Shown piece by piece: positions 8,283 to 27,114 of a DNA stretch of 64,000 bases. The number at the start of each line of letters is the position of its first letter. Position 1 is the first letter of the stretch. A program made the translations under genes and the position numbers. This DNA comes from Maritimibacter sp. (GTDB lineage Bacteria > Pseudomonadota > Alphaproteobacteria > Rhodobacterales > Rhodobacteraceae), in contig NZVC01000057.1 of NCBI GenBank assembly GCA_002701395.1, forward strand, positions 1 to 64,000. The letters are read 5' to 3'. The notes under the pieces are model-generated. The model was not told the origin of the DNA. It ran no database searches and saw only the letters and a list, made by a program, of their open reading frames with translations.

Positions 8283-9578
8283 TCATAGCGACGGAAGCCA
8301 CAGCACAAGGATCGGGAACGCCAGCAACAGTGCCACGTGCAGGACATCCGCCAGCACGAAAGGTCCCGTCCCGCGGAATATCGTGGTCAGGGGAATGTCG
8401 CGGGCCACGCCGCTTAGGACATAGACGTTCATGCCCACCGGCGGGGTGATCAGCGCGATCTCGGTCATGCGCACGACCAGCACGCCGAACAGCACCGCGT
8501 CATAGCCAAGCCCCGTCACCAGCGGAAAGAACAGCGGCACCGTCAGCGTCATCATCGCCGAGGCATCAAGGATCATCCCAAGGAACAGGTACAGGGCCAG
8601 GATGATCAGCAGCACCGCCAGCGGCGGCAGGTCCACCGCGCTGACCCAGCCGACAAGGTTCAGCGGGATCGTCGTGACGGTGACGAAGGCGTTGAACACC
8701 AGCGCCCCGAACAGGATGCCGAAGATCATCCCGGTGGTGCGTAGCGTGTCATAAACGGCGGTGCGCAGGGCGGGCAGGCTTAGCTTGCCGCGCCAGCCCG
8801 CGATCACAAGGGCGCCGAAGGCCCCCATCGCGCCCGCCTCGGTCGGGGTGAACCACCCCCACAGGATGCCGCCCATGACGAAACAGAACAGGACGATCAC
8901 GTCGCCGGTCTTGCGGAAGCCGCGCAGGCGGTCGCCCCAGCCATAGCGCGGGCCAGCCGGGCCGGCTTTCGGGTCAAGGCCGCAGCGGATCGCGATCACC
9001 GCCATGTAGAACAGCGCCAGCAGCACGCCGGGGATGATCCCGGCGGCGAACATGTCGCCGATCGAGGTCTCGGTCAGGATACCGTAGATGATGAACATGC
9101 CGGAGGGCGGGATCAGGCTGCCGATGGTTCCGCCCGCCGCGACCGACCCGGACGCCAGCGACAGGGAATAGTTGTGGCGGCGCATCTCTGGCAGGGCCAC
9201 CAGCCCCATCGTGGCCGTGGTCGCCAGCGAAGAGGCGTTGACCGACGCGAACCCGGCGGACGCCCCGACGGTCGCCATCGCCAGCCCGCCCTTGCGGTGG
9301 CCCAACATACGCGCCGCGAAATCGTACAGGTCCTGCCCGATGCCGCTGGCGAACAGCACATGCGCCATGAACAGGAACAGCGGCACCGTGCCGATGGCAT
9401 AGTTGGTGGCAAGATCGAAGGCGATGACGCCGACCTTGATGATCGCGGCGTGGAAGCTGATCAGAAGACCGAAGCCCACGACGCCCACCAGCCCCATCGC
9501 GAACCCGATGGGCATACCGAAGGCGATGAACAGGAACATCGCGGCGATGCCGATGACGCCGGCCAGAACGGGGGTCAT
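8283..9578 (-). CDS. TRAP transporter large permease (DctM family)
   Basis: The 431-residue integral membrane protein has about twelve helices, with the typical DctM motifs: ASSLATTATMGLVALPEM, GSLIPPSGMFIIYG and a late TPPVGMNVYVLSGVA. It forms the sodium-coupled channel of a tripartite carboxylate importer with the small permease (its gene overlaps by four bases) and the binding protein upstream. It is the last gene of the minus-strand operon that begins with the dehydratase-like subunits, so it probably imports their substrate. The long open frame upstream of the ATG is a shadow of the small permease gene. Confidence 0.93.
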   Translation of the reverse strand: MTPVLAGVIGIAAMFLFIAFGMPIGFAMGLVGVVGFGLLISFHAAIIKVGVIAFDLATNYAIGTVPLFLFMAHVLFASGIGQDLYDFAARMLGHRKGGLAMATVGASAGFASVNASSLATTATMGLVALPEMRRHNYSLSLASGSVAAGGTIGSLIPPSGMFIIYGILTETSIGDMFAAGIIPGVLLALFYMAVIAIRCGLDPKAGPAGPRYGWGDRLRGFRKTGDVIVLFCFVMGGILWGWFTPTEAGAMGAFGALVIAGWRGKLSLPALRTAVYDTLRTTGMIFGILFGALVFNAFVTVTTIPLNLVGWVSAVDLPPLAVLLIILALYLFLGMILDASAMMTLTVPLFFPLVTGLGYDAVLFGVLVVRMTEIALITPPVGMNVYVLSGVARDIPLTTIFRGTGPFVLADVLHVALLLAFPILVLWLPSL

Positions 9579-10063
9579 TTGCCCACCTTCCGGCCCGCGA
9601 TGAACTGCGCGCCGCGCAACACGCAGACCGCGATCATCAGGCAGATTGCCGCCACCATCAGCCAGCGGAACGGCGCGACGGGGATGTCCAGCAGCGGCGT
9701 CACCTCGCCCTGCCGACCGCGGCGCAGCGCCTCTTCGATGGCGGCATAGGCGACAAAGCCCCAGAACACCGTGCCCGCCAGCAGCATCAGTCCCTGCGAC
9801 AGGCCCGAGATACGCGGGCGAAAGGTCTGCACCAGCAGGTCGACCTTGGTATGGGCACCGTCCCACGCGGCGAACGCCAGGGCGAGTGTCACCGTCGGGA
9901 TCAGCAGCAGTTCGGCCAGTACGTAAGTGCCGGGAAAGGCGATGCCGATGGCGCGGAAGACAACCGTGACCACCGTCAGGCCCATCAGTGCCAACAGCGA
10001 CAGAACGCCGAACGCCGCCGCGCCACGCACCACCCGACCAAGCAGTGTTTCAATGCCCGTCAT
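9575..10063 (-). CDS. TRAP transporter small permease (DctQ family)
   Basis: The 162-residue protein has four transmembrane helices and the DctQ pattern (an early RVVRGAAAFGVLSLLALMGLTVVTVVFR and a later AFAAWDGAHTKVDLLVQ). The GAHTKVDLL segment is the conserved H-x-x-[VI]-D motif of TRAP small subunits. The ATG at 10063 has GGGAGAA upstream. It works with the large permease and binding protein genes on either side. Confidence 0.9.
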   Translation of the reverse strand: MTGIETLLGRVVRGAAAFGVLSLLALMGLTVVTVVFRAIGIAFPGTYVLAELLLIPTVTLALAFAAWDGAHTKVDLLVQTFRPRISGLSQGLMLLAGTVFWGFVAYAAIEEALRRGRQGEVTPLLDIPVAPFRWLMVAAICLMIAVCVLRGAQFIAGRKVGK

Positions 10064-10082
10064 CGCTTTCTCCCGGTTGGTC

Positions 10083-10106
10083 GGGGGGCGCACCGCCGCG
10101 CCCCCC
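10083..10106 (-). promoter_or_regulatory. Hairpin between TRAP binding-protein and small-permease genes
   Basis: GGGGGGCGC (83-91 of this block) pairs perfectly with GCGCCCCCC over a six-base loop, directly after the binding-protein stop codon. No T run follows on the minus strand, so it is probably an mRNA-stabilising or partial-termination element that lets the binding protein be made in excess over the permeases. Confidence 0.5.
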
Positions 10107-10112
10107 GGGGTC

Positions 10113-11108
10113 TTATTCGGCGTATGCCGCGCGGATACGCTCCAGCACCTCGGTGCCGGGCTTGCCCATCGCGTCAAGCTCTTCGGCCACCGGCTTCAGC
10201 GCCGGTGCGAAGGCCTCGGAGTACTCGGCCACCACCTCGGGCGCGACGGCGTTGAACGTCACCCCCTGCTCTTCGCCATAGGCGCGCCCGGCGTCCTCGG
10301 CCTCTTGCGCCAGTTCCAGCGTGCGCAGGCTTAGCCACTCGGTGTTGTCGTCGAAGACCTTCTGGATGTCCTCGGGCAGCGAGGCCCAGACATCGCCGTT
10401 GATCCCGCGCGACGGGTAGGCGCCGCGCGAATGCGGCAGTTCCGAGTAGTAATTCACCACCTCGGCGAAGCTAAGCGATTTCAGCGCCTCGTAAGGGGCG
10501 ATGACCCCGTCCACGACACCCTTCTCCAGCGACGGATAGGTTTCCGTCATCGGCATCGTGACACCCTCGGCGCCGAAGGCCGCAAGCGGACCGATAAAGT
10601 CCACCGCCGCGCGGATGCGCAGTCCCTTCAAGTCGTCCAGCCTCTCGATCGGGTTTTCCCGGGTCAGGACGTGCATCGGCGTGCCGACGTTGTAGCCGAC
10701 GACATGCACGCCATCGAGTTCCTCGTTGAAGACCGGATACGACTCGACAAGGTCCATGTAGACGTCCAGCACCTTCGCCGGGTCGGTATAGCCGTAGAAC
10801 ATGCCCGGAACGAGCCGGTTCATGTCATAGCCCGACCGCGCGTAGATCGGCGCGATATAGGCCATGTCGGCGACGCCCGCCGACAGTTCGTCGACCCCCT
10901 CGCGCGAGGTGATCAGCGTGCGGCCCCAGTATGGCGTGATGTCGACCCGGCCGCCGGACTGTTCCTCGATCCGGGCGATCCACTCGGCGTCGGCGGCGCC
11001 GTAGGGGTGCGTCTCGGTGTAGGGCGAGGCATAGGTCAGGTTGAAATCCGCCGCCCATGCGGGCAGCGCGGTAAGGCAAAGCGTGATGATTGCCGTAGTT
11101 CTGAACAT
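10113..11108 (-). CDS. TRAP transporter solute-binding protein (DctP family)
   Basis: The 331-residue periplasmic protein has a signal peptide cleaved after PAWA. Its DctP domain includes THPYGAADAEWIARIEEQSGGRVDI near the N terminus, the helix-hinge region LDDLKGLRIRAAVDFIGPLAAFGAEGV with the carboxylate-binding arginine, and TYPSLEKGVVDGVIAPYEALKSL. This fold captures organic acids for the permease encoded downstream. A strong AAGGGAGG site precedes the ATG. Only 20 bases separate it from the CoA-transferase gene, which ties transport to CoA activation. The ligand cannot be read from sequence. Confidence 0.92.
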   Translation of the reverse strand: MFRTTAIITLCLTALPAWAADFNLTYASPYTETHPYGAADAEWIARIEEQSGGRVDITPYWGRTLITSREGVDELSAGVADMAYIAPIYARSGYDMNRLVPGMFYGYTDPAKVLDVYMDLVESYPVFNEELDGVHVVGYNVGTPMHVLTRENPIERLDDLKGLRIRAAVDFIGPLAAFGAEGVTMPMTETYPSLEKGVVDGVIAPYEALKSLSFAEVVNYYSELPHSRGAYPSRGINGDVWASLPEDIQKVFDDNTEWLSLRTLELAQEAEDAGRAYGEEQGVTFNAVAPEVVAEYSEAFAPALKPVAEELDAMGKPGTEVLERIRAAYAE

Positions 11109-11128: not shown

Positions 11129-12313
11129 CTATGTGAACGCCGGGGTTGATGGCCCGGTCTGGTGCGCGCTCAGCGCGTTTATCTCGGGTTGCGTCAGGCC
11201 AAGGTCGCCAAGGACCTCGGCCGTGTGCGTTCCGGGCAACACGGCGGGATGCGGGCTTTGGAACGCCCCCAGCCGCACCGGCGGACCGGCCTGTATCAGC
11301 GCGCCGCCCGGCGCATCCACCGCGATCACCATGCCGCGTTCGCGCAGGTGCGGTTCCTGCAGGGCCGCCGCCAGATCGTTGACGGGGGCGAACTGCGTGC
11401 CCGCCTGCTCTAGATGCGCCAGCCAATGCGCGCGCGGTTGTGTGGCAAAGATGGCGGCAAGGCCGTTTCGGATCTCATCGCGCTTGCCGGGGTCCATCTG
11501 CCAGTCGGCGTATTCGGGCCTGCCCATCGCGGTACAGAACGCCGCCCAATAGCGCGGCTCCATGTCGGTCGTGACCAGCCATTCGCCATCGGCACAGCGC
11601 CACAGCCCCATGTCGGCGCGCCGGGTGCCGCGTGGCGGGATCTGTGCCGGATCTTCGTACCGGGCGATCAGGTTGGCCAGCAGAACCAGCGAACAGTCCG
11701 TCATAGAGACGTCGACATGTTGTCCCTGCCCCGTCGCGCGTGCCTGCATCACGGCGGCCAGCGTGGCAAACGCCGCATGTGCGCCGGTGGCGATGTCGGC
11801 GGCGGCAAAGCCCGGCAGGCCGGGCGCGTCCGGGTCTTCGCCAGTGCGCGACAGCACGCCCGACAGCGCCAGCGCCACGGGATCATGCCCCGGCTTGTCG
11901 CGCAGCGGTCCGGTCTGACCGCACAGGGTCAGCGAGCTGTAAACAAGCGCCGGATTCCCTTCAGACAGCTGTCCGTATCCCAGCGACAGCTTGTCCAGCA
12001 CGCCGGGACGGTAGTCCTCGACCACGACGTCCACCGTCGCGGCCAGACGGCGCAGCACGGCTTGGGCCTCCGCATCGCCAAGGTCGAGGCAGATCGACTT
12101 CTTCCCGCGCGCCAGCATGTCGCGGGCGCGTTGCCGGGCGCGGCCAGCCTCGTCCAGCTTGTCCCAGCCGAAGACCTTCGCCTGCTTGGCCAGTTCGCGC
12201 GGGTGTTCCACCCGGATCACCTCGGCCCCCTGATCGGCCAGCAGCCACGTGCAGTAGGGCCCGGGCAACAGCCGCGAGAAATCCAGCACGCGAAGTCCGG
12301 CCAGCGCGCTCAT
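11129..12313 (-). CDS. Family III (CaiB/BaiF) CoA-transferase, first of three tandem copies in genome order
   Basis: The 394-residue protein starts GLRVLDFSRLLPGPYCTWLLADQGAEVIRVE, the standard family III opening. The catalytic aspartate position is retained in KPGHDPVALALSGVLSRTG. This family moves CoA between carboxylic acids through an acyl-enzyme anhydride on that aspartate. Its gene overlaps the next CoA-transferase gene by four bases (ATGA). It is probably a homodimer able to act alone, while the two shorter neighbours may form a heteromer. The substrate is unknown; the TRAP system encoded next to it suggests an imported acid. Confidence 0.9.
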   Translation of the reverse strand: MSALAGLRVLDFSRLLPGPYCTWLLADQGAEVIRVEHPRELAKQAKVFGWDKLDEAGRARQRARDMLARGKKSICLDLGDAEAQAVLRRLAATVDVVVEDYRPGVLDKLSLGYGQLSEGNPALVYSSLTLCGQTGPLRDKPGHDPVALALSGVLSRTGEDPDAPGLPGFAAADIATGAHAAFATLAAVMQARATGQGQHVDVSMTDCSLVLLANLIARYEDPAQIPPRGTRRADMGLWRCADGEWLVTTDMEPRYWAAFCTAMGRPEYADWQMDPGKRDEIRNGLAAIFATQPRAHWLAHLEQAGTQFAPVNDLAAALQEPHLRERGMVIAVDAPGGALIQAGPPVRLGAFQSPHPAVLPGTHTAEVLGDLGLTQPEINALSAHQTGPSTPAFT

Positions 12314-13296
12314 GCGGCGTTCCCTTCATGCACGGCGAACAACGGCCCCGGAACGCCATCGGCGTCGAACACCCCGCGCGCCCGCATCTGCGGGCTGTCG
12401 GGTACCTCGGACAGCTTGATGATCGGCGACAGGCCCCAGCCATGTTCCAGCGACCAGTCGGCAAGGGTCTGGCGATCATGCTTGGCGAAGAACGCGGCGA
12501 CCACCGCCTGCCAGCGTTCGATGATCTCTTGGTCCGTGTCGGCGACAAGGATGTCGTCCCAGTCAATGTCGGCCAGTTCCCCCGCAGCACCCTCGGCCTG
12601 CATCACGCGGACAAGGGCGCGCATCATGCCGGGGTTGTCGATCATGGACCACGTCACGAAGCCATCGGCACAGGGCCAAATCTGCCGCACTCCGGATTTG
12701 CCGCGCACCAGCATGTTGCCTTGCCGGGTGCCGATCCGTCCGGTGTGTTCGTACATCACCGCCTCGCGGTAATTGGCCAGCGCCGCGCATTGCAGGCCCG
12801 ACAGGGTGATGCGCTGTCCCTTGCCGGTCAGACGCCGCGCCCGCAGGCCCATCAGGGCCGCCGTCGCCGCCTGAATGCCGGTCAGCGCATAGGCCTGTTC
12901 GCCCGGCAGCCGCAGCGGCGGGCGGTCGGGCTGGCCGATGACATGCATCAGCCCCGACTGCGCCATCAGCGTCAGGTCGGTCGCGGGGCGGTCGCTGTCA
13001 GGAAAGCCCGTCACGACAATGTGGATCAGCCGGTCGTGCGCCGAAGCCAGCGCGTCGACCCCGTCGCGCGGGTCGGTGCGCCGGTCGTCCAGCCGGATGT
13101 CGGCCCCTTGCAGCAGGTCGGCCAGCGGCGCGTCGCTGCGCACCATCCCCTTGTGCCATGCCTTTTCCCGCGCCTCGGTCAGCGGCGCGGCATCGGCAAG
13201 GATCACCTCTGCGCCCAGCCGCGCCAGCATCGAGCCGCCGAAATCCACCATGTGATCGGCCAGCACCACCGCCTTGATCCCATCGAGCAGCTTCAT
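12310..13296 (-). CDS. Short family III CoA-transferase
   Basis: The 328-residue protein is shorter than the family norm of about 390-430. It starts MKLLDGIKAVVLADHMVDFGGSMLARLGAEVILAD and keeps an aspartate at the catalytic position (RPATDLTLMAQSGLMHVIG). The N-terminal frame could extend upstream but that part is the shadow of the preceding gene. It overlaps both neighbours by four bases. Its size and its pairing with the next gene resemble two-subunit family III transferases such as BbsEF, an inference from organisation only. Confidence 0.85.
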   Translation of the reverse strand: MKLLDGIKAVVLADHMVDFGGSMLARLGAEVILADAAPLTEAREKAWHKGMVRSDAPLADLLQGADIRLDDRRTDPRDGVDALASAHDRLIHIVVTGFPDSDRPATDLTLMAQSGLMHVIGQPDRPPLRLPGEQAYALTGIQAATAALMGLRARRLTGKGQRITLSGLQCAALANYREAVMYEHTGRIGTRQGNMLVRGKSGVRQIWPCADGFVTWSMIDNPGMMRALVRVMQAEGAAGELADIDWDDILVADTDQEIIERWQAVVAAFFAKHDRQTLADWSLEHGWGLSPIIKLSEVPDSPQMRARGVFDADGVPGPLFAVHEGNAA

Positions 13297-14396
13297 GCCA
13301 GCGCCCCCTCTGCCACCAGTTCGGAAACCTCGGCCTCGGTCAGCCCGATCTCGGCGAACACCGCCGCGTTGTCCGCCCCAAGGCACGGGGAGGGTCCGAC
13401 ATGGCCGGGCGTGCCGGACAGGGCGTAGGGCGGCGCGGGCATCCGGGCGGTGCCGATCACCGGGTGATCCACCGCCACGAAATGCCCCGCCTCGGCCAGC
13501 GCCGGGTGCTCGGACAGGCCCTTGCCGTCCAGCACCGCCGCCGCCGGAACACCACGCGCGACCAGTGCCTGTTCCAGCGCGAAGACATCCCAGCCGGAAC
13601 TGTCATCGCCCATCACATCGGCCAGCGCGGCGCGGTGCGCGTCACTTTCGCAGGCGATCGCGATCCACTTGCCGTCCTTGCAGGGAAACACCCCGTGCGG
13701 GTGCATCACGGGATCGTCGTTCGCGGGTTTCTCGGTCGGCATCTCGGCAAAGAGATCGCCCGCGACCTGCACCATCGCCTCGATCTGGCTGACATCGACC
13801 CATGTGCCCTGCCCCGTCCGGTCGCGATGCTCCAGCGCCGACAGAACGGCCACGGTCAGCATCATCGGCGCGACCACGTCGCCGTAAGCGAAAGGCGGCA
13901 TATGGGGTTCCGTCCCCGGCCAGCCGGTCATGTCGCAATGGCCCGACCATGCCGCGGCAGAGTTGCCATAGCCGCGAAACCCGGCCATCGGCCCGGTCCG
14001 GCCCGCGACGGACACGCTGGCAAGGATGATGCCGGGGCGGATGTCCTGCAGCGTCTGCCAATCCAGCCCGATCCGGTCCATGTAGCCGGGGCCGAAGTTC
14101 TCGACCACCACGTCGGCCCATGCCACAAGCCGCTTGGCCACCTCGACCCCGCGCGGGTCGCCAAGGTTGATCGTCACGCTTTGCTTCGACGTGTTGGTCT
14201 GCGCAAAGAAGACCGAGGCATCGTGGTTCCGCCGGTCGCCCCCGGCAAAGGGCGGCGAGCGGCGTCCAAGGTCCAGCCGCCGCGCGCTTTCGATCTTCAC
14301 CACCCGCGCGCCGTTGTCGGCCAGATCCTTGGTGGCGCGCGGCCCGGCGCCCACCCACGAGAAATCCGCGATCTTCAGCCCGTCGAGCGCGCCCAT
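13293..14396 (-). CDS. Family III CoA-transferase lacking the usual catalytic aspartate
   Basis: The 367-residue protein has the family opening (DGLKIADFSWVGAGPRATKDLADNGARVVKIE) and a typical nucleotide-contact segment (NTSKQSVTINLGDPRG). At the catalytic position, however, it reads RGYGNSAAAWSG, where active members read G-x-D. This suggests a non-catalytic partner of the 328-residue transferase next to it, or an active site that uses another residue. The ATG at 14396 overlaps the stop codon of the dehydratase-like subunit gene. Confidence 0.85.
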   Translation of the reverse strand: MGALDGLKIADFSWVGAGPRATKDLADNGARVVKIESARRLDLGRRSPPFAGGDRRNHDASVFFAQTNTSKQSVTINLGDPRGVEVAKRLVAWADVVVENFGPGYMDRIGLDWQTLQDIRPGIILASVSVAGRTGPMAGFRGYGNSAAAWSGHCDMTGWPGTEPHMPPFAYGDVVAPMMLTVAVLSALEHRDRTGQGTWVDVSQIEAMVQVAGDLFAEMPTEKPANDDPVMHPHGVFPCKDGKWIAIACESDAHRAALADVMGDDSSGWDVFALEQALVARGVPAAAVLDGKGLSEHPALAEAGHFVAVDHPVIGTARMPAPPYALSGTPGHVGPSPCLGADNAAVFAEIGLTEAEVSELVAEGALA

Positions 14397-15640
14397 CACC
14401 CTGCCTCCTGTTCCAGCGCCGCACGCACGCGCGCTTCCATCGTTTCGCGGTCCCAATCGCGCGGGTCGACCATGTCGGAATGAATCTCGACCACCCGCAC
14501 GCCTGCGGCGCGCAGCGCCTCGCGCGCGAAATAGGAACCATACCCGGAAAAGCGGTCATGTTCCGGCACCAGCAGAACCGCGACGTCGATGCGCCAGCGC
14601 TTCGCTTCCTTGACCATCCACGCATTGACCCAGGGCGGCTGGTGCAGCTGTTCGTTCATCGCCGCCACCCGGGCCGCCAGCGCCCGCAGCGGATCGCCGT
14701 GGTCGGCGCGAATATAGCCGTCGGCGGCGAAGGGCAGGTACATCGACCAGCAGAACACCGCGCCGTGCGACTCTTCGAAGGCGCGATAGAACGACGTGTC
14801 GAACCACAGCCCCGCGCCGATCCACATCATGCGGGTGCGCTCGTCTTCGCAGACCGCCTCGCCCCGCTCGATCCGTCCCGCGACCTCGTCGCGGAACGCC
14901 GTGACGTGCGACAGGGCCCAGTCGCTGCCCCGGTGCCACTGCGGGATCATCACGTTCGGCATCTGCTCGCCGATGCCCACGGGACACTTGTCCGCCCCGG
15001 CGATCATGTCCGCGACGTCGTCGAGAATGCGTTCCTGCTCGTCGATCCGGGCCATGTAGGCGGCGAATGCGGCATGGTCGAAATCGCGCCCGGTCAGCCG
15101 TTCCAGCGCCTCGATCAGCACCTGCATCTCGGCCACCATCAGGTCCAGCCGGGCGGTGCCGTACAGCCCTTCCCAGTCGCTGCGGGCGCGCGTCCACCAG
15201 TCCGGCGCAGGGTCGGGCGTGGCGGGGGCGGACAGCAGGTGCAGTTCCGCCCCGGTCAGGTCCGCCCAGTGCTGGAACAGGCGCGGATGCTCATCCGAAC
15301 TGGCGCGGGCGCACAGGATCGCCGGCGCCGGCAGGCCGCCCCACGGCTGCCGGTCGAAATCCCCCTGCATCTGCGCGATCAGCGGCAGGCTGGAATACCG
15401 CGGCAGGTGGGCGTGAAAGCCCAGATCCTCCATCCGGTCGAAGTAGTCGGGCGCCAACTGCTTGGCCGCGATGACAGCCGACCACCATTGGTTGGTGACC
15501 ATCGGCACGTCCATGAAATGAAACAGCTCGTGCGGCGTGTCGGCGTTGACGAAGGCAAAGGGCGCACCGTCGGTGATCTGCCCGCGCAGACCCTTCAGCC
15601 AGTCACGCTGATAGCTGGTGGCGGCTTGGGCGCAGGTCAT
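14396..15640 (-). CDS. 2-hydroxyacyl-CoA dehydratase-like subunit, cluster cysteines mostly missing
   Basis: The 414-residue protein follows the 2-hydroxyacyl-CoA dehydratase / benzoyl-CoA reductase BcrC-HgdB fold pattern: TPHELFHFMDVPM near residue 35, ILCARASSDEHPRLFQHWADLTG near 108-130, and a late VAVLLVPEHDRFSG...EALRAAGVRVVEIHSD. Known members bind a [4Fe-4S] cluster through three cysteines. Here only the middle one (about Cys110) is at the expected place. The first is in a PRYSSL context and the third in EHDRFSGYG. It may work without a cluster or have another role. No activator ATPase gene lies nearby. It overlaps its partner gene by four bases. Confidence 0.75.
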   Translation of the reverse strand: MTCAQAATSYQRDWLKGLRGQITDGAPFAFVNADTPHELFHFMDVPMVTNQWWSAVIAAKQLAPDYFDRMEDLGFHAHLPRYSSLPLIAQMQGDFDRQPWGGLPAPAILCARASSDEHPRLFQHWADLTGAELHLLSAPATPDPAPDWWTRARSDWEGLYGTARLDLMVAEMQVLIEALERLTGRDFDHAAFAAYMARIDEQERILDDVADMIAGADKCPVGIGEQMPNVMIPQWHRGSDWALSHVTAFRDEVAGRIERGEAVCEDERTRMMWIGAGLWFDTSFYRAFEESHGAVFCWSMYLPFAADGYIRADHGDPLRALAARVAAMNEQLHQPPWVNAWMVKEAKRWRIDVAVLLVPEHDRFSGYGSYFAREALRAAGVRVVEIHSDMVDPRDWDRETMEARVRAALEQEAG

Positions 15641-16695
15641 GACAGAGCCTCCGATATGCGGGCGCGGGCGCGGTCCTGCCATGCCGCGTCGGGGCGGAAC
15701 GGGCGAAAGCCAAGGTCGAGAAACCGCGCGCCCTGCGCCTTGGCGGCCGCGCGCAGGCCGGGCAGCTCCCAGCCGAAACTGTCGTCATTCGCGTCGACGC
15801 TGGCGATCACCAGATCCGCGCCTTGGATGCCCGCGTGCAGCGCCTGCGTATACCGTCCCGGCGGCGCCGCACGGGTGGAAAGCGGGTCAAGCGCGATGTC
15901 GCCCAGCCGGTCGCCGCTGTCCGGTTGCACCGCAACGCGGCCATAGTCCTGAAGATCGGCGATGACCTGCCCTTGCCCCGCGCAAAGGTCGTGCAGCACG
16001 GGAATATCGCAGGCGGTGCCGACAAGGGCGATCTTCGGCCCCGGCTGTTGTGCAAGGTCGGACAGCAAGGCGACGTGCGCATCCGGCGCAATCCAGCGAC
16101 CAGCGTTGCGCGCAACAAAGGCGTCGGGCCCGCCGGTCGGCAACCCGCGCAGGGCATCGACACGGCGCATTTCGGCGGCGACCGCGTCCGACAGGCGGCC
16201 CGCATCGAGCGCCGTGCCAAGCGTTTCGGACAGGTGACGTGTCAGCCGGTCAAGCTCGGTTGCGTTGAACGCGGCGGCCGGGGCGCTGTCGGTGTGCAGC
16301 AGGTTCCACAGGTACAGGCGCGGGCCACGGTCGGGCAGATGGCCCAGCCGGCGCAGTTCCAGCGCGTATTGATAGGCCGCCAGCGCGGCGACATCCTCAC
16401 GCACGAAGATCAGCGTGGCGAAATCATCGAACGCCCCCGCCGCGAAACGGTGCAGAAAGCGGGTCGCGAAGGGATCGAGGAAGGGTTCCGCCACCGTATC
16501 GACGATGGCAGAGCGCGGGCCATCCACGCTATCGGACAGCGGCGGCGCTTTGACGTCCAGCGGCATCCCGCCCAGCGCGGAGACCAGCGCACGCGGCACA
16601 CCTTCGCCGAACAGGCCAACCGGACCGTCCGGCCCGGACCGCGCCCCATCGGCGCGCATGGCGAATGCCTGCTGCAAGTCTGAATGCACTGGCAC
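15637..16695 (-). CDS. Second 2-hydroxyacyl-CoA dehydratase-like subunit, no cluster cysteines seen
   Basis: The 352-residue protein is the first gene product of the minus-strand operon. It starts at a GTG (16695) with a strong GGGGAGGG site. Its pattern fits the smaller subunit of this fold: GVPRALVSALGGMPLDV near residue 32, DDFATLIFVREDVAALAAYQY near 90-110, LYLWNLLHTDSAPAAAFNATELDRL near 130-150, and GPKIALVGTACDIPVLHDLCAGQGQVIADLQDYG near 220-250. The cysteines that hold the [4Fe-4S] cluster in HadC/HgdA are not seen at the first two sites (FATRFLHRF and FVREDV). Family assignment is moderate because the protein is divergent. Confidence 0.65.
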   Translation of the reverse strand: MPVHSDLQQAFAMRADGARSGPDGPVGLFGEGVPRALVSALGGMPLDVKAPPLSDSVDGPRSAIVDTVAEPFLDPFATRFLHRFAAGAFDDFATLIFVREDVAALAAYQYALELRRLGHLPDRGPRLYLWNLLHTDSAPAAAFNATELDRLTRHLSETLGTALDAGRLSDAVAAEMRRVDALRGLPTGGPDAFVARNAGRWIAPDAHVALLSDLAQQPGPKIALVGTACDIPVLHDLCAGQGQVIADLQDYGRVAVQPDSGDRLGDIALDPLSTRAAPPGRYTQALHAGIQGADLVIASVDANDDSFGWELPGLRAAAKAQGARFLDLGFRPFRPDAAWQDRARARISEALS

Positions 16696-23736: not shown

Positions 23737-24677
23737 CCGCGATCCTGTCCACCCATGCGCTGGGCCGCACGTTCCGGACCAAGGGCGGCCCCCTGCACGC
23801 GCTGACCGAGGTCACGATAGACTGCCTGCCGGGCCGGTCGCTGGGCGTGGTCGGAGAGTCGGGCTGCGGCAAGACGACCCTGAACCGGCTGATCCTGATG
23901 CTCGACAGCCCGACAGCGGGAGAGGTCCGCTTCAAGGGCAAGCCCCTGTCCGCGCTAGGCCGCGCCGAACGCCGCGCCTTTCGCCGGGCCGTGCAGCCGG
24001 TGTTCCAGAACCCCTATTCCTCGCTCAACCCGCGTCTGCGGGTGCGTCGGATCATCCGCGAACCGCTGGCGGCGAACACCGACCTTGGCCGTGCGCAGAT
24101 CGACGCCCGGGTCGACGAGGTTCTTGAAGCGGTCGGCCTTTCGGCGCGCGACGGCGACCGGCTGCCAGCCGAGTTCTCTGGCGGGCAAAGGCAGCGCATC
24201 GCCATCGCGCGGGCGCTGGCGTCGAAACCCGAACTGATGCTTTTGGACGAACCGGTGTCGTCGCAGGACATCTCGATCCGGGCGCAGATCCTGAACACGT
24301 TGAAGGACCTGCGCGACGAATACGGGCTGGGCACGCTGTTCGTCAGCCACGACCTCGCGACCGTGCGGTTCATGTGCGACGAGGTGATTGTGATCTACCT
24401 TGGCCGCATCGTCGAACGCGGCCCGGCGGCGCAAATCTGCACCGCGCCGCGACACCCCTACACGCAGGCTCTGCTGGCGGCGACGCTTCCCGCCGACCCG
24501 GATGCGCAGGGCGTGGCCGTGCCGCCGAAGGGGGAAATCCCCTCGCCGCTGTCGCCTCCGCCGGGCTGCGCCTATCACACGCGCTGCCCCTTCGCGCGCG
24601 ACATCTGCAAGGCACAGCGCCCCGAGGCGCGGGACGGAGTCGCCTGTCACATGGTCCACGACGGGGGCTGGTTATGA
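23733..24677 (+). CDS. ABC transporter ATP-binding protein, DppF type
   Basis: The 314-residue ATPase has Walker A GESGCGKTT, signature FSGGQRQRIAIARAL, Walker B LMLLDEPVSSQD and H-loop FVSHDLATV. The C-terminal extension has the same cysteine pattern (GCAYHTRCPFARDICKAQRP). The D-loop reads SSQD rather than the usual SALD, a small variant seen in DppF-like proteins. Gene overlaps of four bases on both sides show strict co-translation. Confidence 0.93.
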   Translation: MTAILSTHALGRTFRTKGGPLHALTEVTIDCLPGRSLGVVGESGCGKTTLNRLILMLDSPTAGEVRFKGKPLSALGRAERRAFRRAVQPVFQNPYSSLNPRLRVRRIIREPLAANTDLGRAQIDARVDEVLEAVGLSARDGDRLPAEFSGGQRQRIAIARALASKPELMLLDEPVSSQDISIRAQILNTLKDLRDEYGLGTLFVSHDLATVRFMCDEVIVIYLGRIVERGPAAQICTAPRHPYTQALLAATLPADPDAQGVAVPPKGEIPSPLSPPPGCAYHTRCPFARDICKAQRPEARDGVACHMVHDGGWL

Positions 24678-25789
24678 CCTGTCGCTTCATCGCCGTGGGC
24701 GACGTCGCGCCCGACCGGGACGACCCGGCCAGCATATTCGCCCATGTTAGGGACCGAATCCGCGCCGCCGATCTTGGCTATTGCCAGCTAGAGGTGAACC
24801 TGACGACCCGTGGTCAGCGCGTGCCGCAGGCGCGTCATACCGTGCGCGGCAAGCCCGAGATCGCCGATGCGCTGGTCGGCACCGGGCTGAACATCGTGTC
24901 CTTCGCCGGAAACCACACGATGGACTGGGGCCCCGAGGGGATGTTCGACACGCTTGCCAATCTGGACCGCGCAGGCGCGCGCCACATGGGGGCCGGGGCG
25001 CACATCATGCAGGCCCGCGCCCCGGTGATCGAACAGCGCGGCGGCGTCACCGTGGGGTTTCTGGCGGTCAATTCGATCCTGCCTCAGAACTACTGGGCGG
25101 ATGACGACAAGCCCGGCTGCGCACCGATGCGGGGCCACACCGTCTATGAGCAGATCGAACACGACCAGCCCGGCACGCCCGCGCGCGTCCACACCTTCCC
25201 GCATCGTGAAGACCTTGCCGCGCTGACCGGCTCGATCCGGGCGCTGAAGGACCGGGTCGACGTGGTGATCCTGTCGCATCACGCCGGCATCCACTTCGTT
25301 CCGGCGGTGATCCCCGACTATCAGCGCGACGTGGGCCGCGCCGCAATCGACGCGGGGGCCGACATGGTGCTGGGCTGTCACGCGCACATCCTCAAGGGGA
25401 TGGAGTTCCACAACGGCAAGCCGATCATCCATTCGCTGGCCAACTTCGCTCTGGATCTCTGGATGACGCCGGAACACGCGGCGGGGCGTGGATTTCGCGA
25501 GATTCAGTCTCTGTCTCCGGGGTGGGAGCCGGATTTCACCTCTTCTTATAATTTCCCGCCGGACTCGCGCATGAGCATCGCGGTCGAGGCCACGCTGACG
25601 TCTGGTGGCGTGGCCGATCTGACGCTGCTTCCGGTCTGGATCGACCGGGACTCTGCCCCCCGCTTCGTGTCGGCCTCCGAACCAGAATTCGACCGCATCC
25701 TGTCGTACCTGCGCAAGATCACCGAGACCGCGGGCCTGCCCACGCGCTATCGCGCGGATGGCGACACGATCCGGCCCGATCCAGCATGA
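24674..25789 (+). CDS. CapA family protein (metallophosphatase fold)
   Basis: The 371-residue protein is of the CapA / PGA_cap type, a calcineurin-like metallophosphatase fold. Features are FIAVGDVAPD at the start, LEVNLTTRG, FAGNHTMDWGPEGMFDTLANLDRAGARHMGAG (about residues 76-107), VVILSHHAGIHFVP (about 197-210), MVLGCHAHILKGMEFHNGKPIIHSLANFALD (about 233-265). The GNH, SHH and GCHAH motifs carry the probable metal ligands. CapA of Bacillus acts in poly-gamma-glutamate assembly, but in alphaproteobacterial catabolic operons it is more likely a hydrolase of a phospho- or amide-type substrate. No signal peptide is seen, so it should be cytoplasmic. It is encoded between a transporter and an MmgE/PrpD gene. 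Confidence 0.85.
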   Translation: MTCRFIAVGDVAPDRDDPASIFAHVRDRIRAADLGYCQLEVNLTTRGQRVPQARHTVRGKPEIADALVGTGLNIVSFAGNHTMDWGPEGMFDTLANLDRAGARHMGAGAHIMQARAPVIEQRGGVTVGFLAVNSILPQNYWADDDKPGCAPMRGHTVYEQIEHDQPGTPARVHTFPHREDLAALTGSIRALKDRVDVVILSHHAGIHFVPAVIPDYQRDVGRAAIDAGADMVLGCHAHILKGMEFHNGKPIIHSLANFALDLWMTPEHAAGRGFREIQSLSPGWEPDFTSSYNFPPDSRMSIAVEATLTSGGVADLTLLPVWIDRDSAPRFVSASEPEFDRILSYLRKITETAGLPTRYRADGDTIRPDPA

Positions 25790-27114
25790 CCGTAACGCTG
25801 GATATCGCCGCACGGTCGCGGGCCGTGTCGTGGGACGCCCTTGCGCCCAGCGCACAGCACGCGGCGCGGCTGTGTCTTGCGGATGGGCTGGCCGTGATGC
25901 TTGGCGCCCTGCGGCTTGAACCTGCGGTCCAGCCGTTCCAGACGCAGGCGCGGCTGTACGGGCCCGGCCCCGCACCGCTGCTGGCGGGGGGAACCGCCCC
26001 GGCCCCGGCCGCCGCGCTGGCCAACGGCGCGCTGGCCCATGCGCTGGATTTCGAGGACACCTTCGACCGCGCCGGCCTGCATGTGAACGCGGCGGTGATC
26101 CCGACCGTTTTGGCGCTGGGGCCGGACAAGCCGCTGGCAGAGGTGCTTCGCGCCATGATCCTTGGCGCCGATCTTGCCTGCCGCATCGGGCTGTCCCTGA
26201 CTCGCGATCCGGCGACGCGCGGCTGGTATCACCCGCCGATGATCGGCGCCTTCGGTGCGGCGCTGGCCGGCGCGCTGCTTCTGGGTCTGGATGACAAGCA
26301 GACCGTTGCTGCACTGTCTCTAACGCAGGCGCAGTTCGCCCTGAGCGATGCCTTGAAACGCAGTCCCGCAAGCGATCTGCGCGCCGTCCGCGACGGGTTC
26401 GCCGCGCGCGCCGCGACCGAGGCGGTGATGCTGGCGCAGGCCGGGGTCACCGGCACGACCGACCCGGTGGCGGAAGACGGTGGCCTTGTTCACATGATGA
26501 CCGGTGCCGCGCCCGACCCCGCACCCTTCGCGGACGTTGGAAACCCGGTGCTGGCGACGGACGTGACGCTAAAGCCGTGGCCCTGCTGCCGGGGCACCCA
26601 TCGCGCCATCGCGCTGGCGTTGGACCTGCGGGCGCAGGGCGTCGCGCCGGCGGACTTGCACGATGTGGCCTTCGACGTGGCCCCGCCGGACGACATGCTG
26701 TTCGCGCCACGGGGCGACCGCATCCGCCCCGCCACGGCCATCGCGGCGAAGTTCTCGATCCCGTTCTGCTTTGCCGCGGCGATTTTGCACGGGGCGCCGG
26801 GGCTGCTGGCATTCGACGATGCCGCCCGGCGGGACCCCGACACGCTGGCGCTGGCACAGCGGGCCAGCCTTGCAAGCTGCGCACCGGGCACGACCCCGAC
26901 TGCGCGGCTGACATGGGCAAACGGCACGCAAGACGTCAGCCCGCTGCCCGACCCGCCCGAGATGCGCGCCGGGGACACGTCCTTTGCCCGGCTTACGCCG
27001 AAATTCACCGACTGCGTCGGGCGCTCTGGTGCGCTCGACATGCTGCTTTCCCTAGAAACCGCCGATCCCGCGCTGCCTGTCGCCACGTTGCTGGCCGGCC
27101 TCGCACCGGCCTGA
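25786..27114 (+). CDS. MmgE/PrpD family protein
   Basis: The 442-residue protein belongs to the MmgE/PrpD (2-methylcitrate dehydratase-like) family. Features are an early AARLCLADGLAVMLGALRLEP, then ANGALAHALDFEDTF (about residues 77-92), and a helical segment ending PKFTDCVGRSGALDML typical of the C-terminal domain. Characterised members dehydrate 2-methylcitrate or isomerise itaconate/aconitate-like acids, so a role on a branched tricarboxylic or hydroxy acid is possible. Its gene overlaps the CapA-like gene by four bases and is 17 bases before the P450 gene. Confidence 0.87.
   Translation: MTVTLDIAARSRAVSWDALAPSAQHAARLCLADGLAVMLGALRLEPAVQPFQTQARLYGPGPAPLLAGGTAPAPAAALANGALAHALDFEDTFDRAGLHVNAAVIPTVLALGPDKPLAEVLRAMILGADLACRIGLSLTRDPATRGWYHPPMIGAFGAALAGALLLGLDDKQTVAALSLTQAQFALSDALKRSPASDLRAVRDGFAARAATEAVMLAQAGVTGTTDPVAEDGGLVHMMTGAAPDPAPFADVGNPVLATDVTLKPWPCCRGTHRAIALALDLRAQGVAPADLHDVAFDVAPPDDMLFAPRGDRIRPATAIAAKFSIPFCFAAAILHGAPGLLAFDDAARRDPDTLALAQRASLASCAPGTTPTARLTWANGTQDVSPLPDPPEMRAGDTSFARLTPKFTDCVGRSGALDMLLSLETADPALPVATLLAGLAPA

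What the first reader, a model, noticed from the sequence alone, without database searches (positions are those of the whole stretch)
14396..16695. 2-hydroxyacyl-CoA dehydratase-like pair without most iron-sulfur cysteines and without an activator gene
Seen: at the places where HadB/HgdB-type proteins carry three cluster cysteines, the 414-residue subunit keeps only the middle one and the 352-residue subunit none of the first two. No HgdC/HadI-type ATPase gene is in 64 kb. Known: the classical enzymes are oxygen-sensitive radical enzymes that need that cluster and activator. Inferred: a divergent branch that works in an aerobe by another mechanism, or a substrate-binding or regulatory pair.
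Basis: partly seen in the sequence, partly recalled or inferred. Interest (0 to 1): 0.75.

Follow-up and report, generated by a model that had tools for sequence, protein, structure and literature searches.

The report
Dehydratase-like pair lacking iron-sulfur cluster
Aerobic bacteria carry a conserved two-protein relative of oxygen-sensitive radical dehydratases that has lost its iron-sulfur cluster residues and its activator yet keeps its CoA-binding residues, so it probably does different, oxygen-tolerant chemistry on an imported acid.

Summary
The 414-aa (A) and 352-aa (B) proteins have the full fold of HadB/BzdO and HadC/BzdN (VIA Z 35.7/33.5 and 32.5/33.0). A Glu conserved in the radical enzymes is Gln in A, but the two tyrosines that hold the thioester in BzdO are kept in 53 of 53 branch rows. 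No activator ATPase was recognised in any of 39 tested genomes carrying this branch, against 20 of 20 tested genomes with cysteine-bearing pairs. The branch is one clade, under purifying selection, in alphaproteobacterial loci mostly with class III CoA-transferases (two BbsEF-like) and TRAP transporters. A's cysteines go from 3 or 2 to 0, with one complete loss in a 44-row tree. Best reading: an acyl-CoA enzyme using polar, non-radical chemistry on an imported, CoA-activated hydroxy- or dicarboxylic acid. Loss of cluster residues and activator is well supported; reaction and substrate are inferred and untested.

The parts
14396..15640 (-). A subunit (alpha-like, HadB/BzdO fold), 414 aa, no cluster cysteines
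   Evidence: PF06050 131.6 bits; model pLDDT 82.6, HadB Z 35.7, BzdO Z 33.5; ligand positions
15637..16695 (-). B subunit (beta-like, HadC/BzdN fold), 352 aa, no cluster cysteines
   Evidence: model pLDDT 91.9, BzdN Z 33.0, HadC Z 32.5; ligand positions
13293..14402 (-). Class III CoA-transferase a, BbsF-like, with the aligned Asp (D175)
   Evidence: PF02515 285 bits; best PDB match 9fn0_B, E 1.4e-50; D175 in 22 of 22 rows
12310..13299 (-). Class III CoA-transferase b, BbsE-like, Tyr in place of that Asp (start approximate)
   Evidence: PF02515 119 bits; best PDB match 9fn0_A, E 2.8e-15; Tyr in the window and in 5 of 5 relatives aligned
11129..12313 (-). Class III CoA-transferase c
   Evidence: best PDB match succinate--hydroxymethylglutarate CoA-transferase 9br7, E 9.6e-49; D173 in 22 of 22 rows
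10113..11108 (-). TRAP transporter substrate-binding protein DctP (start approximate)
   Evidence: PF03480 121 bits
9575..10063 (-). TRAP transporter small permease DctQ (start approximate)
   Evidence: PF04290 54 bits
8283..9590 (-). TRAP transporter large permease (start approximate)
   Evidence: reading frame; conserved with the operon; homologue annotated as TRAP large permease in L025
16829..17323 (+). MarR-type regulator, divergent from B
   Evidence: PF12802 49 bits
17408..18586 (+). Class III CoA-transferase d
   Evidence: PF02515 376 bits; D176 in 21 of 21 rows with a letter; conserved near the pair

Best explanation
A and B form a heterodimer of the 2-hydroxyacyl-CoA dehydratase / benzoyl-CoA reductase fold that has left radical chemistry. 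SHOWN by sequence: none of the three cluster cysteines is left in either subunit; a Glu conserved in HadB and MbdO is Gln; no activator gene was recognised in the assembled genome; the two tyrosines that hold the thioester oxygen in BzdO are kept. INFERRED: the TRAP transporter imports an organic acid; the BbsEF-like pair (a+b) and transferases c and d move CoA onto it; A binds the CoA ester in the old substrate channel; and A catalyses a polar acid-base step, most likely elimination of water or a carbon-carbon lyase step in which the leaving group sits beta to the thioester, where the beta-proton problem that forces 2-hydroxyacyl-CoA dehydratases into radical chemistry does not arise. The old cluster positions are surrounded by conserved charged residues (A: R126, D130, D376, R377; B: D74, R99, E100, D101, D304) that may bind the substrate or fill the gap. 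B is probably a structural partner that has lost its electron-relay role.
For: Ligand columns: A, 28 of 28 full-length rows of the cysteine-bearing group have 3 of 3 Cys; of 53 branch rows 37 have 0, 15 have 2, 1 has 3 (two of the 53 repeat another row). B: 57 of 57 cells are Cys in 19 cysteine-bearing rows; one Cys in 44 branch rows. Conserved-Glu position: E in 28 of 28; in the branch Q 48, T 3, A 1, E 1. Thioester tyrosines Y96 and Y315 (BzdO Y97, Y298): 53 of 53 (roles from PMC11971306 section 9). Activator profile: 21 of 23 and 15 of 16 branch genomes have no match at E 0.001, the other three only partial 20-23 bit matches; 5 of 5 and 15 of 15 tested cysteine-bearing-pair genomes match at E about 1e-60 or better. 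dN well below dS for A and B. Full fold match. B and A in one frame in L043 and L044. Gene order kept in 15 of 18 loci. BbsEF-like transferase pair.
Against: No biochemistry. No coordinates could be inspected, so the geometry of the charged residues is not shown. In the A model confidence is low in two of the three ligand loops (residues 91-100 mean 67, 371-380 mean 61). 15 of 53 A rows keep two ligand cysteines and also have Cys at positions 97 and 131, and one row keeps three, so part of the branch may still bind a cluster or a metal. R126 and R377 are absent in the fused sub-branch. One member (L091) keeps E at the Glu position, and one B row (L044) has a Cys at the second position. Substrate unknown; the link to aromatic genes is post hoc and not seen in Rhodobacterales-type loci.
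Confidence: 0.5

Rival explanations
1. A and B no longer catalyse: they are an acyl-CoA-binding accessory or sensor for the neighbouring CoA-transferases or the MarR regulator.
For: CoA-transferase neighbours are found at nearly every locus looked at; cluster residues and Glu lost while thioester tyrosines stay.
Against: A is the better-conserved subunit, with many invariant polar residues, more than plain CoA binding needs; CoA-transferases a, c and d keep their aligned Asp; locus L129 has the pair with no CoA-transferase found by tblastn.
Confidence: 0.18
2. The pair still uses a metal centre: a residual [4Fe-4S] or zinc site in the cysteine-keeping members, or a carboxylate-bound divalent metal at the acidic site of B, acting as a Lewis acid as in aconitase, not as an electron carrier.
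For: L042 keeps all three A cysteines but none in B, and no activator was found in its genome G014; sphingomonad-type A proteins carry four cysteines at the old site; B has D74, E100, D101, D304 in the window.
Against: The window's own A has no Cys at these positions, and no Cys column is shared by the whole branch; B's acidic residues are not kept in all members.
Confidence: 0.2
3. It is an ordinary radical 2-hydroxyacyl-CoA dehydratase that borrows an unrecognised activator and holds its cluster by other residues.
For: Same fold; class III CoA-transferases also serve the Fld and Had dehydratases (recalled).
Against: No activator recognised in 39 genomes; B relay cysteines gone in 43 of 44 rows, with one Cys in the last (some rows gapped); the conserved Glu gone in 52 of 53 rows.
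Confidence: 0.03

Closest known systems
(R)-2-hydroxyisocaproyl-CoA dehydratase HadBC (PDB 3o3m/3o3n/3o3o)
   Same: Full-length fold of both subunits (Z 35.7 and 32.5); alpha/beta-type pair; class III CoA-transferase context (for Had recalled)
   Different: No cluster cysteines in either subunit, Glu to Gln, no activator recognised in the genome
Class I benzoyl-CoA reductases BzdNO and MbdON (8s02, 9g87)
   Same: Best sequence-profile matches of A (BzdO 1.3e-15, MbdO 1.7e-15) and of B (BzdN 4.5e-13); thioester tyrosines kept
   Different: BzdO ligands C95, C128, C380 are P94, S129, D376; no activator of the A4 kind recognised
Benzylsuccinate CoA-transferase BbsEF (9fn0)
   Same: CoA-transferase a is closest to chain B and b to chain A among solved chains; one partner with and one without the aligned Asp
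   Different: The operon's own genes include none for benzylsuccinate beta-oxidation; the relatives are mostly aerobes (recalled)

Membership tests
HGD-D fold superfamily (PF06050) | Pfam gathering score 28.4 bits, A subunit | tested here: met
   A 131.6 bits
HGD-D fold superfamily (PF06050) | Pfam gathering score 28.4 bits, B subunit | tested here: not met
   B 16.7 bits, E 0.0058; placed by fold instead
HGD-D fold superfamily (PF06050) | Full-length three-dimensional fold of both subunits | tested here: met
   A to HadB Z 35.7, 389 aligned; B to BzdN Z 33.0, 336 aligned
Radical 2-hydroxyacyl-CoA dehydratase / class I benzoyl-CoA reductase | Three cysteines holding the alpha-subunit [4Fe-4S] cluster | tested here: not met
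   P94, S129, D376
Radical 2-hydroxyacyl-CoA dehydratase / class I benzoyl-CoA reductase | Three cysteines of the beta-subunit relay cluster | tested here: not met
   D74, E100 or D101, D304
Radical 2-hydroxyacyl-CoA dehydratase / class I benzoyl-CoA reductase | ATP-dependent activator encoded in the genome | tested here: not met
   none recognised in 39 of 39 tested branch genomes against 20 of 20 tested controls matched; the window's genome is a 62-contig assembly
Radical 2-hydroxyacyl-CoA dehydratase / class I benzoyl-CoA reductase | Conserved active-site Glu (Glu65 in BzdO) | tested here: not met
   Gln65 pairs with a Glu of MbdO and HadB; that this Glu is BzdO Glu65 is inferred, as BzdO's stretch was not in the printed alignments
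Radical 2-hydroxyacyl-CoA dehydratase / class I benzoyl-CoA reductase | Acyl-CoA thioester-binding tyrosines (BzdO Tyr97, Tyr298) | tested here: met
   Y96 and Y315, 53 of 53 branch rows
Radical 2-hydroxyacyl-CoA dehydratase / class I benzoyl-CoA reductase | Dehydration of a 2-hydroxyacyl-CoA | not testable with these tools
   needs an assay
Heteromeric class III CoA-transferase of the BbsEF kind | Two partners, one with and one without the aligned Asp | tested here: met
   a D175, b Tyr; the 695-aa sphingomonad form has Thr in its first and Asp in its second half; that BbsEF itself is so built is recalled
Heteromeric class III CoA-transferase of the BbsEF kind | Benzylsuccinate as substrate | not testable with these tools
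   needs an assay

The most novel reading that the evidence does not exclude
A new oxygen-tolerant enzyme class built on the 2-hydroxyacyl-CoA dehydratase scaffold: activator and beta-subunit relay are gone from the whole branch, and the alpha-subunit cluster was then lost, with intermediates still living (3, 2 and 0 cysteines), the emptied cluster site becoming a charged acid-base site for a CoA ester made by a BbsEF-like transferase.
Probability: 0.45. Interest if true: 0.8.

Novelty: new variant of a known kind. Interest (0 to 1): 0.62.

Why it matters
The family is a textbook case of chemistry that needs low-potential Fe-S clusters and an ATP-driven one-electron activator, and so is tied to anoxic life. 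A selected branch, patchily spread in alphaproteobacteria, that has shed all of that yet keeps the acyl-CoA residues would show how a radical enzyme scaffold is re-used for polar chemistry, and its living 3-, 2- and 0-cysteine members make the path testable. It also warns annotators: some of these genes are labelled '2-hydroxyacyl-CoA dehydratase family protein'.

Tried and rejected
Activator elsewhere: PF01869 gave L001, a 290-aa BadF-type protein beside an SDR gene (named by eye), which the activator profile A4 did not match at E 0.001, and the weak L002; A4's only G000 match, L056, reads by eye as an FGGY sugar kinase and G678's L057 as a hydantoinase/oxoprolinase-type protein. G956's 20.6-bit match was not examined. 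Decay: argued against by dN/dS and conservation.

Coverage of the activator test: of the genomes carrying the branch, 17 of the 21 named loci were tested (not L004, L007, L010, L021) and, of the G genomes, all but G979, G1045 and G1052, which by the place of the match are the genomes of L012, L023 and L013; the seven plasmid records with branch members were not tested. Of the 28 G genomes with only cysteine-bearing or weak matches, 20 were tested.

Substrate: I considered aryl-lactates (for instance from rosmarinate), aryl-malates and benzylsuccinate-like acids. Of the 10 sphingomonad-, Caulobacterales- and similar loci, 8 lie near PobA, pca, hydroxycinnamoyl-CoA hydratase/lyase, aldehyde dehydrogenase or tannase genes (not L021, a short contig, nor L043), but of 9 none (one 35% Rieske match in L131). 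Rhodobacterales-type loci gave only general hits of 27-33% to these markers (L008, L016, L073); in the window a 47% thiolase match lies 40 kb away. The markers were taken from four of the eight loci (L025, L026, L042, L044), and L041 had been seen, so this is only a hint. Alpha-elimination of an aryl-lactyl-CoA without a cluster is chemically hard, so I do not commit to it.

Literature: seven searches for such a pair or its substrate listed no paper that, by title or start of abstract, describes a cluster-less member; the library is only part of the literature. Seen: PMC11971306 passages and sections 8 and 9; PMC11574389 passages and section 6; PMC10818641 passages; search listings otherwise.

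Trees: the 62-row quick tree (from 82 rows) was rebuilt with 44 rows, leaving out near-copies and the long-branched L091, L121, L028, L045 and L104/L105/L112. Ligand columns were not removed. L091 (0 Cys) paired with L042 (3 Cys) in the first tree; with it, a second loss cannot be excluded. Which rows count as cysteine-bearing was set by locus; the tree, not the cysteines alone, separates the groups, but six of the nine L104-L112 rows were not in it.

Errors of mine: the A row used a wrong frame; its A values are void and were redone. One search's printout was cut by the output limit.
Full report
OBSERVATION. Two genes on the minus strand, B (15637-16695, 352 aa) and A (14396-15640, 414 aa), overlap by ATGA, so they are probably translated together. 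A is a clear PF06050 member (131.6 bits, cut-off 28.4); B is below the cut-off (16.7 bits). The genome's two PF01869 (activator-type) matches are on other contigs, and A is the only PF06050 match of the genome at E 0.001.

FOLD. AlphaFold2 models: B mean pLDDT 91.9, A 82.6. VIA-align 2 puts B on BzdN (Z 33.0, 2.6 A, 336 aligned) and HadC (Z 32.5), and A on HadB (Z 35.7, 3.0 A, 389 aligned), the MbdONPQ entry (Z 33.6) and BzdO (Z 33.5); the first rows outside the family stand at Z 8.1 and 6.0. Both chains therefore keep the whole fold. Confidence is low in two of A's three ligand loops.

CLUSTER POSITIONS. BzdO holds its [4Fe-4S] cluster by Cys95, Cys128 and Cys380, with Glu65 and His131 as acid/base groups, and holds the thioester oxygen by Tyr97, Tyr298 and Gln274 (PMC11971306, sections 8 and 9). 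The profile alignment puts P94, S129 and D376 of the window's A at the three cysteines, Y96 and Y315 at the tyrosines and A290 at Gln274; a Glu of MbdO and HadB falls on Q65. I take that Glu for BzdO's Glu65; BzdO's own stretch was not printed in any alignment. MAFFT with cysteine-bearing homologues agrees on the cysteines. In B the three positions hold D74, E100 or D101 (the two alignments differ by one residue) and D304.

RELATIVES AND COUNTS. One genome-collection scan gave 21 loci. Profile searches found the branch in 4 of 385 genomes of the class, 4 of 398 of the phylum, 10 of 321 of the window's order and 12 of 326 of the order of the sphingomonad-type genome G325, the window's own genome counted in the first three. 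The other 3, 2, 7 and 17 matching genomes gave only weaker matches (E 1e-22 or poorer), and the rows taken from them were cysteine-bearing. Every branch member found whose class was shown is alphaproteobacterial. From these, the plasmid records and the fetched stretches, 82 A-like rows were extracted: 53 of the branch (L075 repeats L013 and L079 repeats L023) and 29 of the cysteine-bearing group (one partial). Cysteines at the three A positions: 28 of 28 full-length cysteine-bearing rows have three; of 53 branch rows 37 have none, 15 two, one three (L042). Glu position: E in 28 of 28; branch Q 48, T 3, A 1, E 1. Both thioester tyrosines: 53 of 53 branch and 26 of 28 full-length cysteine-bearing rows. 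B: all three cysteines in 19 of 19 cysteine-bearing rows; in 44 branch rows a single cysteine, at the second position of L044 (at least eight branch rows are gapped at one or more of the positions). The rows are related, so these counts are not independent events. The one cysteine-bearing A protein checked (L050) is closest to MbdO among solved chains, so the control group may be reductase-like, not dehydratase-like.

ACTIVATOR. A seven-sequence activator profile (A4) was run on whole genomes. Of 23 genomes carrying the branch, 21 had no match at E 0.001 and two (G000, G678) only partial matches of 23.2 and 21.1 bits that read as other proteins. Of 16 further branch genomes 15 had none and G956 one partial 20.6-bit match, not examined. 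All 5 and all 15 tested genomes with cysteine-bearing pairs matched at E about 1e-60 or better; 8 more such genomes were not tested. G000 is listed as 100% complete with 9% contamination.

TREE. In a 62-row tree the cysteine-bearing group and the branch are the two sides of one fork (SH-aLRT 98). In a 44-row careful tree the no-cysteine rows form one clade (98/94), the three-cysteine L042 is its sister (90/100) and the two-cysteine sphingomonad and Caulobacterales rows branch earlier, at an unresolved fork. This fits one complete loss of the A cysteines after the B cysteines and the activator were already gone. The deepest forks are weakly held, and L091 and L121 were left out as long branches.

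SELECTION. Window against six relatives: A dN 0.085-0.18 with dS 0.6-1.1; B dN 0.23-0.46 with dS 0.94-1.2. Both are under purifying selection, A more strongly.

NEIGHBOURS. In 15 of 18 Rhodobacterales- and Aquamicrobium-type loci the order B, A, CoA-transferases a, b, c, TRAP P, Q, M is kept; L006 and L011 have only B, A, MarR and CoA-transferase d, and L007 is fragmentary. Transferase a is closest among solved chains to 9fn0 chain B and b to chain A, the two benzylsuccinate CoA-transferase subunits; a, c and d have an Asp where b has Tyr (that this Asp is the nucleophile is recalled). Sphingomonads have a 695-aa CoA-transferase that covers both partners in one frame, with Thr in the first and Asp in the second half at that place, and L043 and L044 have B and A in one 788- or 795-aa frame, which supports a physical B-A pair. 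A second sub-branch (L027, L071, L072) sits with one or two CoA-transferases, a PIG3-type quinone oxidoreductase and a regulator that looks IclR-like by eye. L129 has the pair without a CoA-transferase found.

MECHANISM. 2-Hydroxyacyl-CoA dehydratases need the alpha cluster as reductant and Lewis acid, the beta cluster for electron transfer and storage and the activator as donor, because the beta-proton is otherwise too weakly acidic (PMC11574389, section 6). The window's pair lacks the residues or genes for all of these but keeps the thioester tyrosines. The likeliest chemistry is therefore polar: a beta-elimination or lyase step on a CoA ester in which the leaving group is beta to the thioester, as would arise if a transferase of the BbsEF kind puts CoA on the far carboxylate of a hydroxy-dicarboxylic acid. 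R126 (47 of 53), D130 (50 of 53) and R377 (47 of 53), found at those places in 0, 0 and 1 of the cysteine-bearing rows, are candidates for new catalytic or cavity-filling residues. This step is inference. Rivals are a non-catalytic binding pair, or a Lewis-acid metal site in the cysteine-keeping members.

VERDICT. Membership in the fold superfamily is met by A's profile score and by the fold of both chains (B's profile score fails); membership in the radical dehydratase/reductase family fails on four tested features. Overall a new variant of a known kind: real, selected, patchily spread in alphaproteobacteria, function open.

Noticed in passing
window 24374-27114 (+): A CapA/PGA_cap-family gene directly followed by an MmgE/PrpD gene; the two families also occur near the pair in L014, L025 and L134, which hints at a shared pathway.
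   Followed up: partly
L027, L071, L072: Sister cluster-less pairs in a different setting: CoA-transferase(s), B, A, PIG3-type quinone oxidoreductase, IclR-like regulator (by eye).
   Followed up: partly
L020, L025, L026, L029, L041 and other sphingomonad loci, A positions 94-131: Sphingomonad A proteins carry a CxxC plus CxC set at the old cluster site, two of the four outside the classical ligand positions, which could bind another metal.
   Followed up: no
L007, around 8397-10993: In this MAG B and CoA-transferases a, b and d are fragmentary although A is whole; may be an assembly fault or a decaying copy.
   Followed up: no
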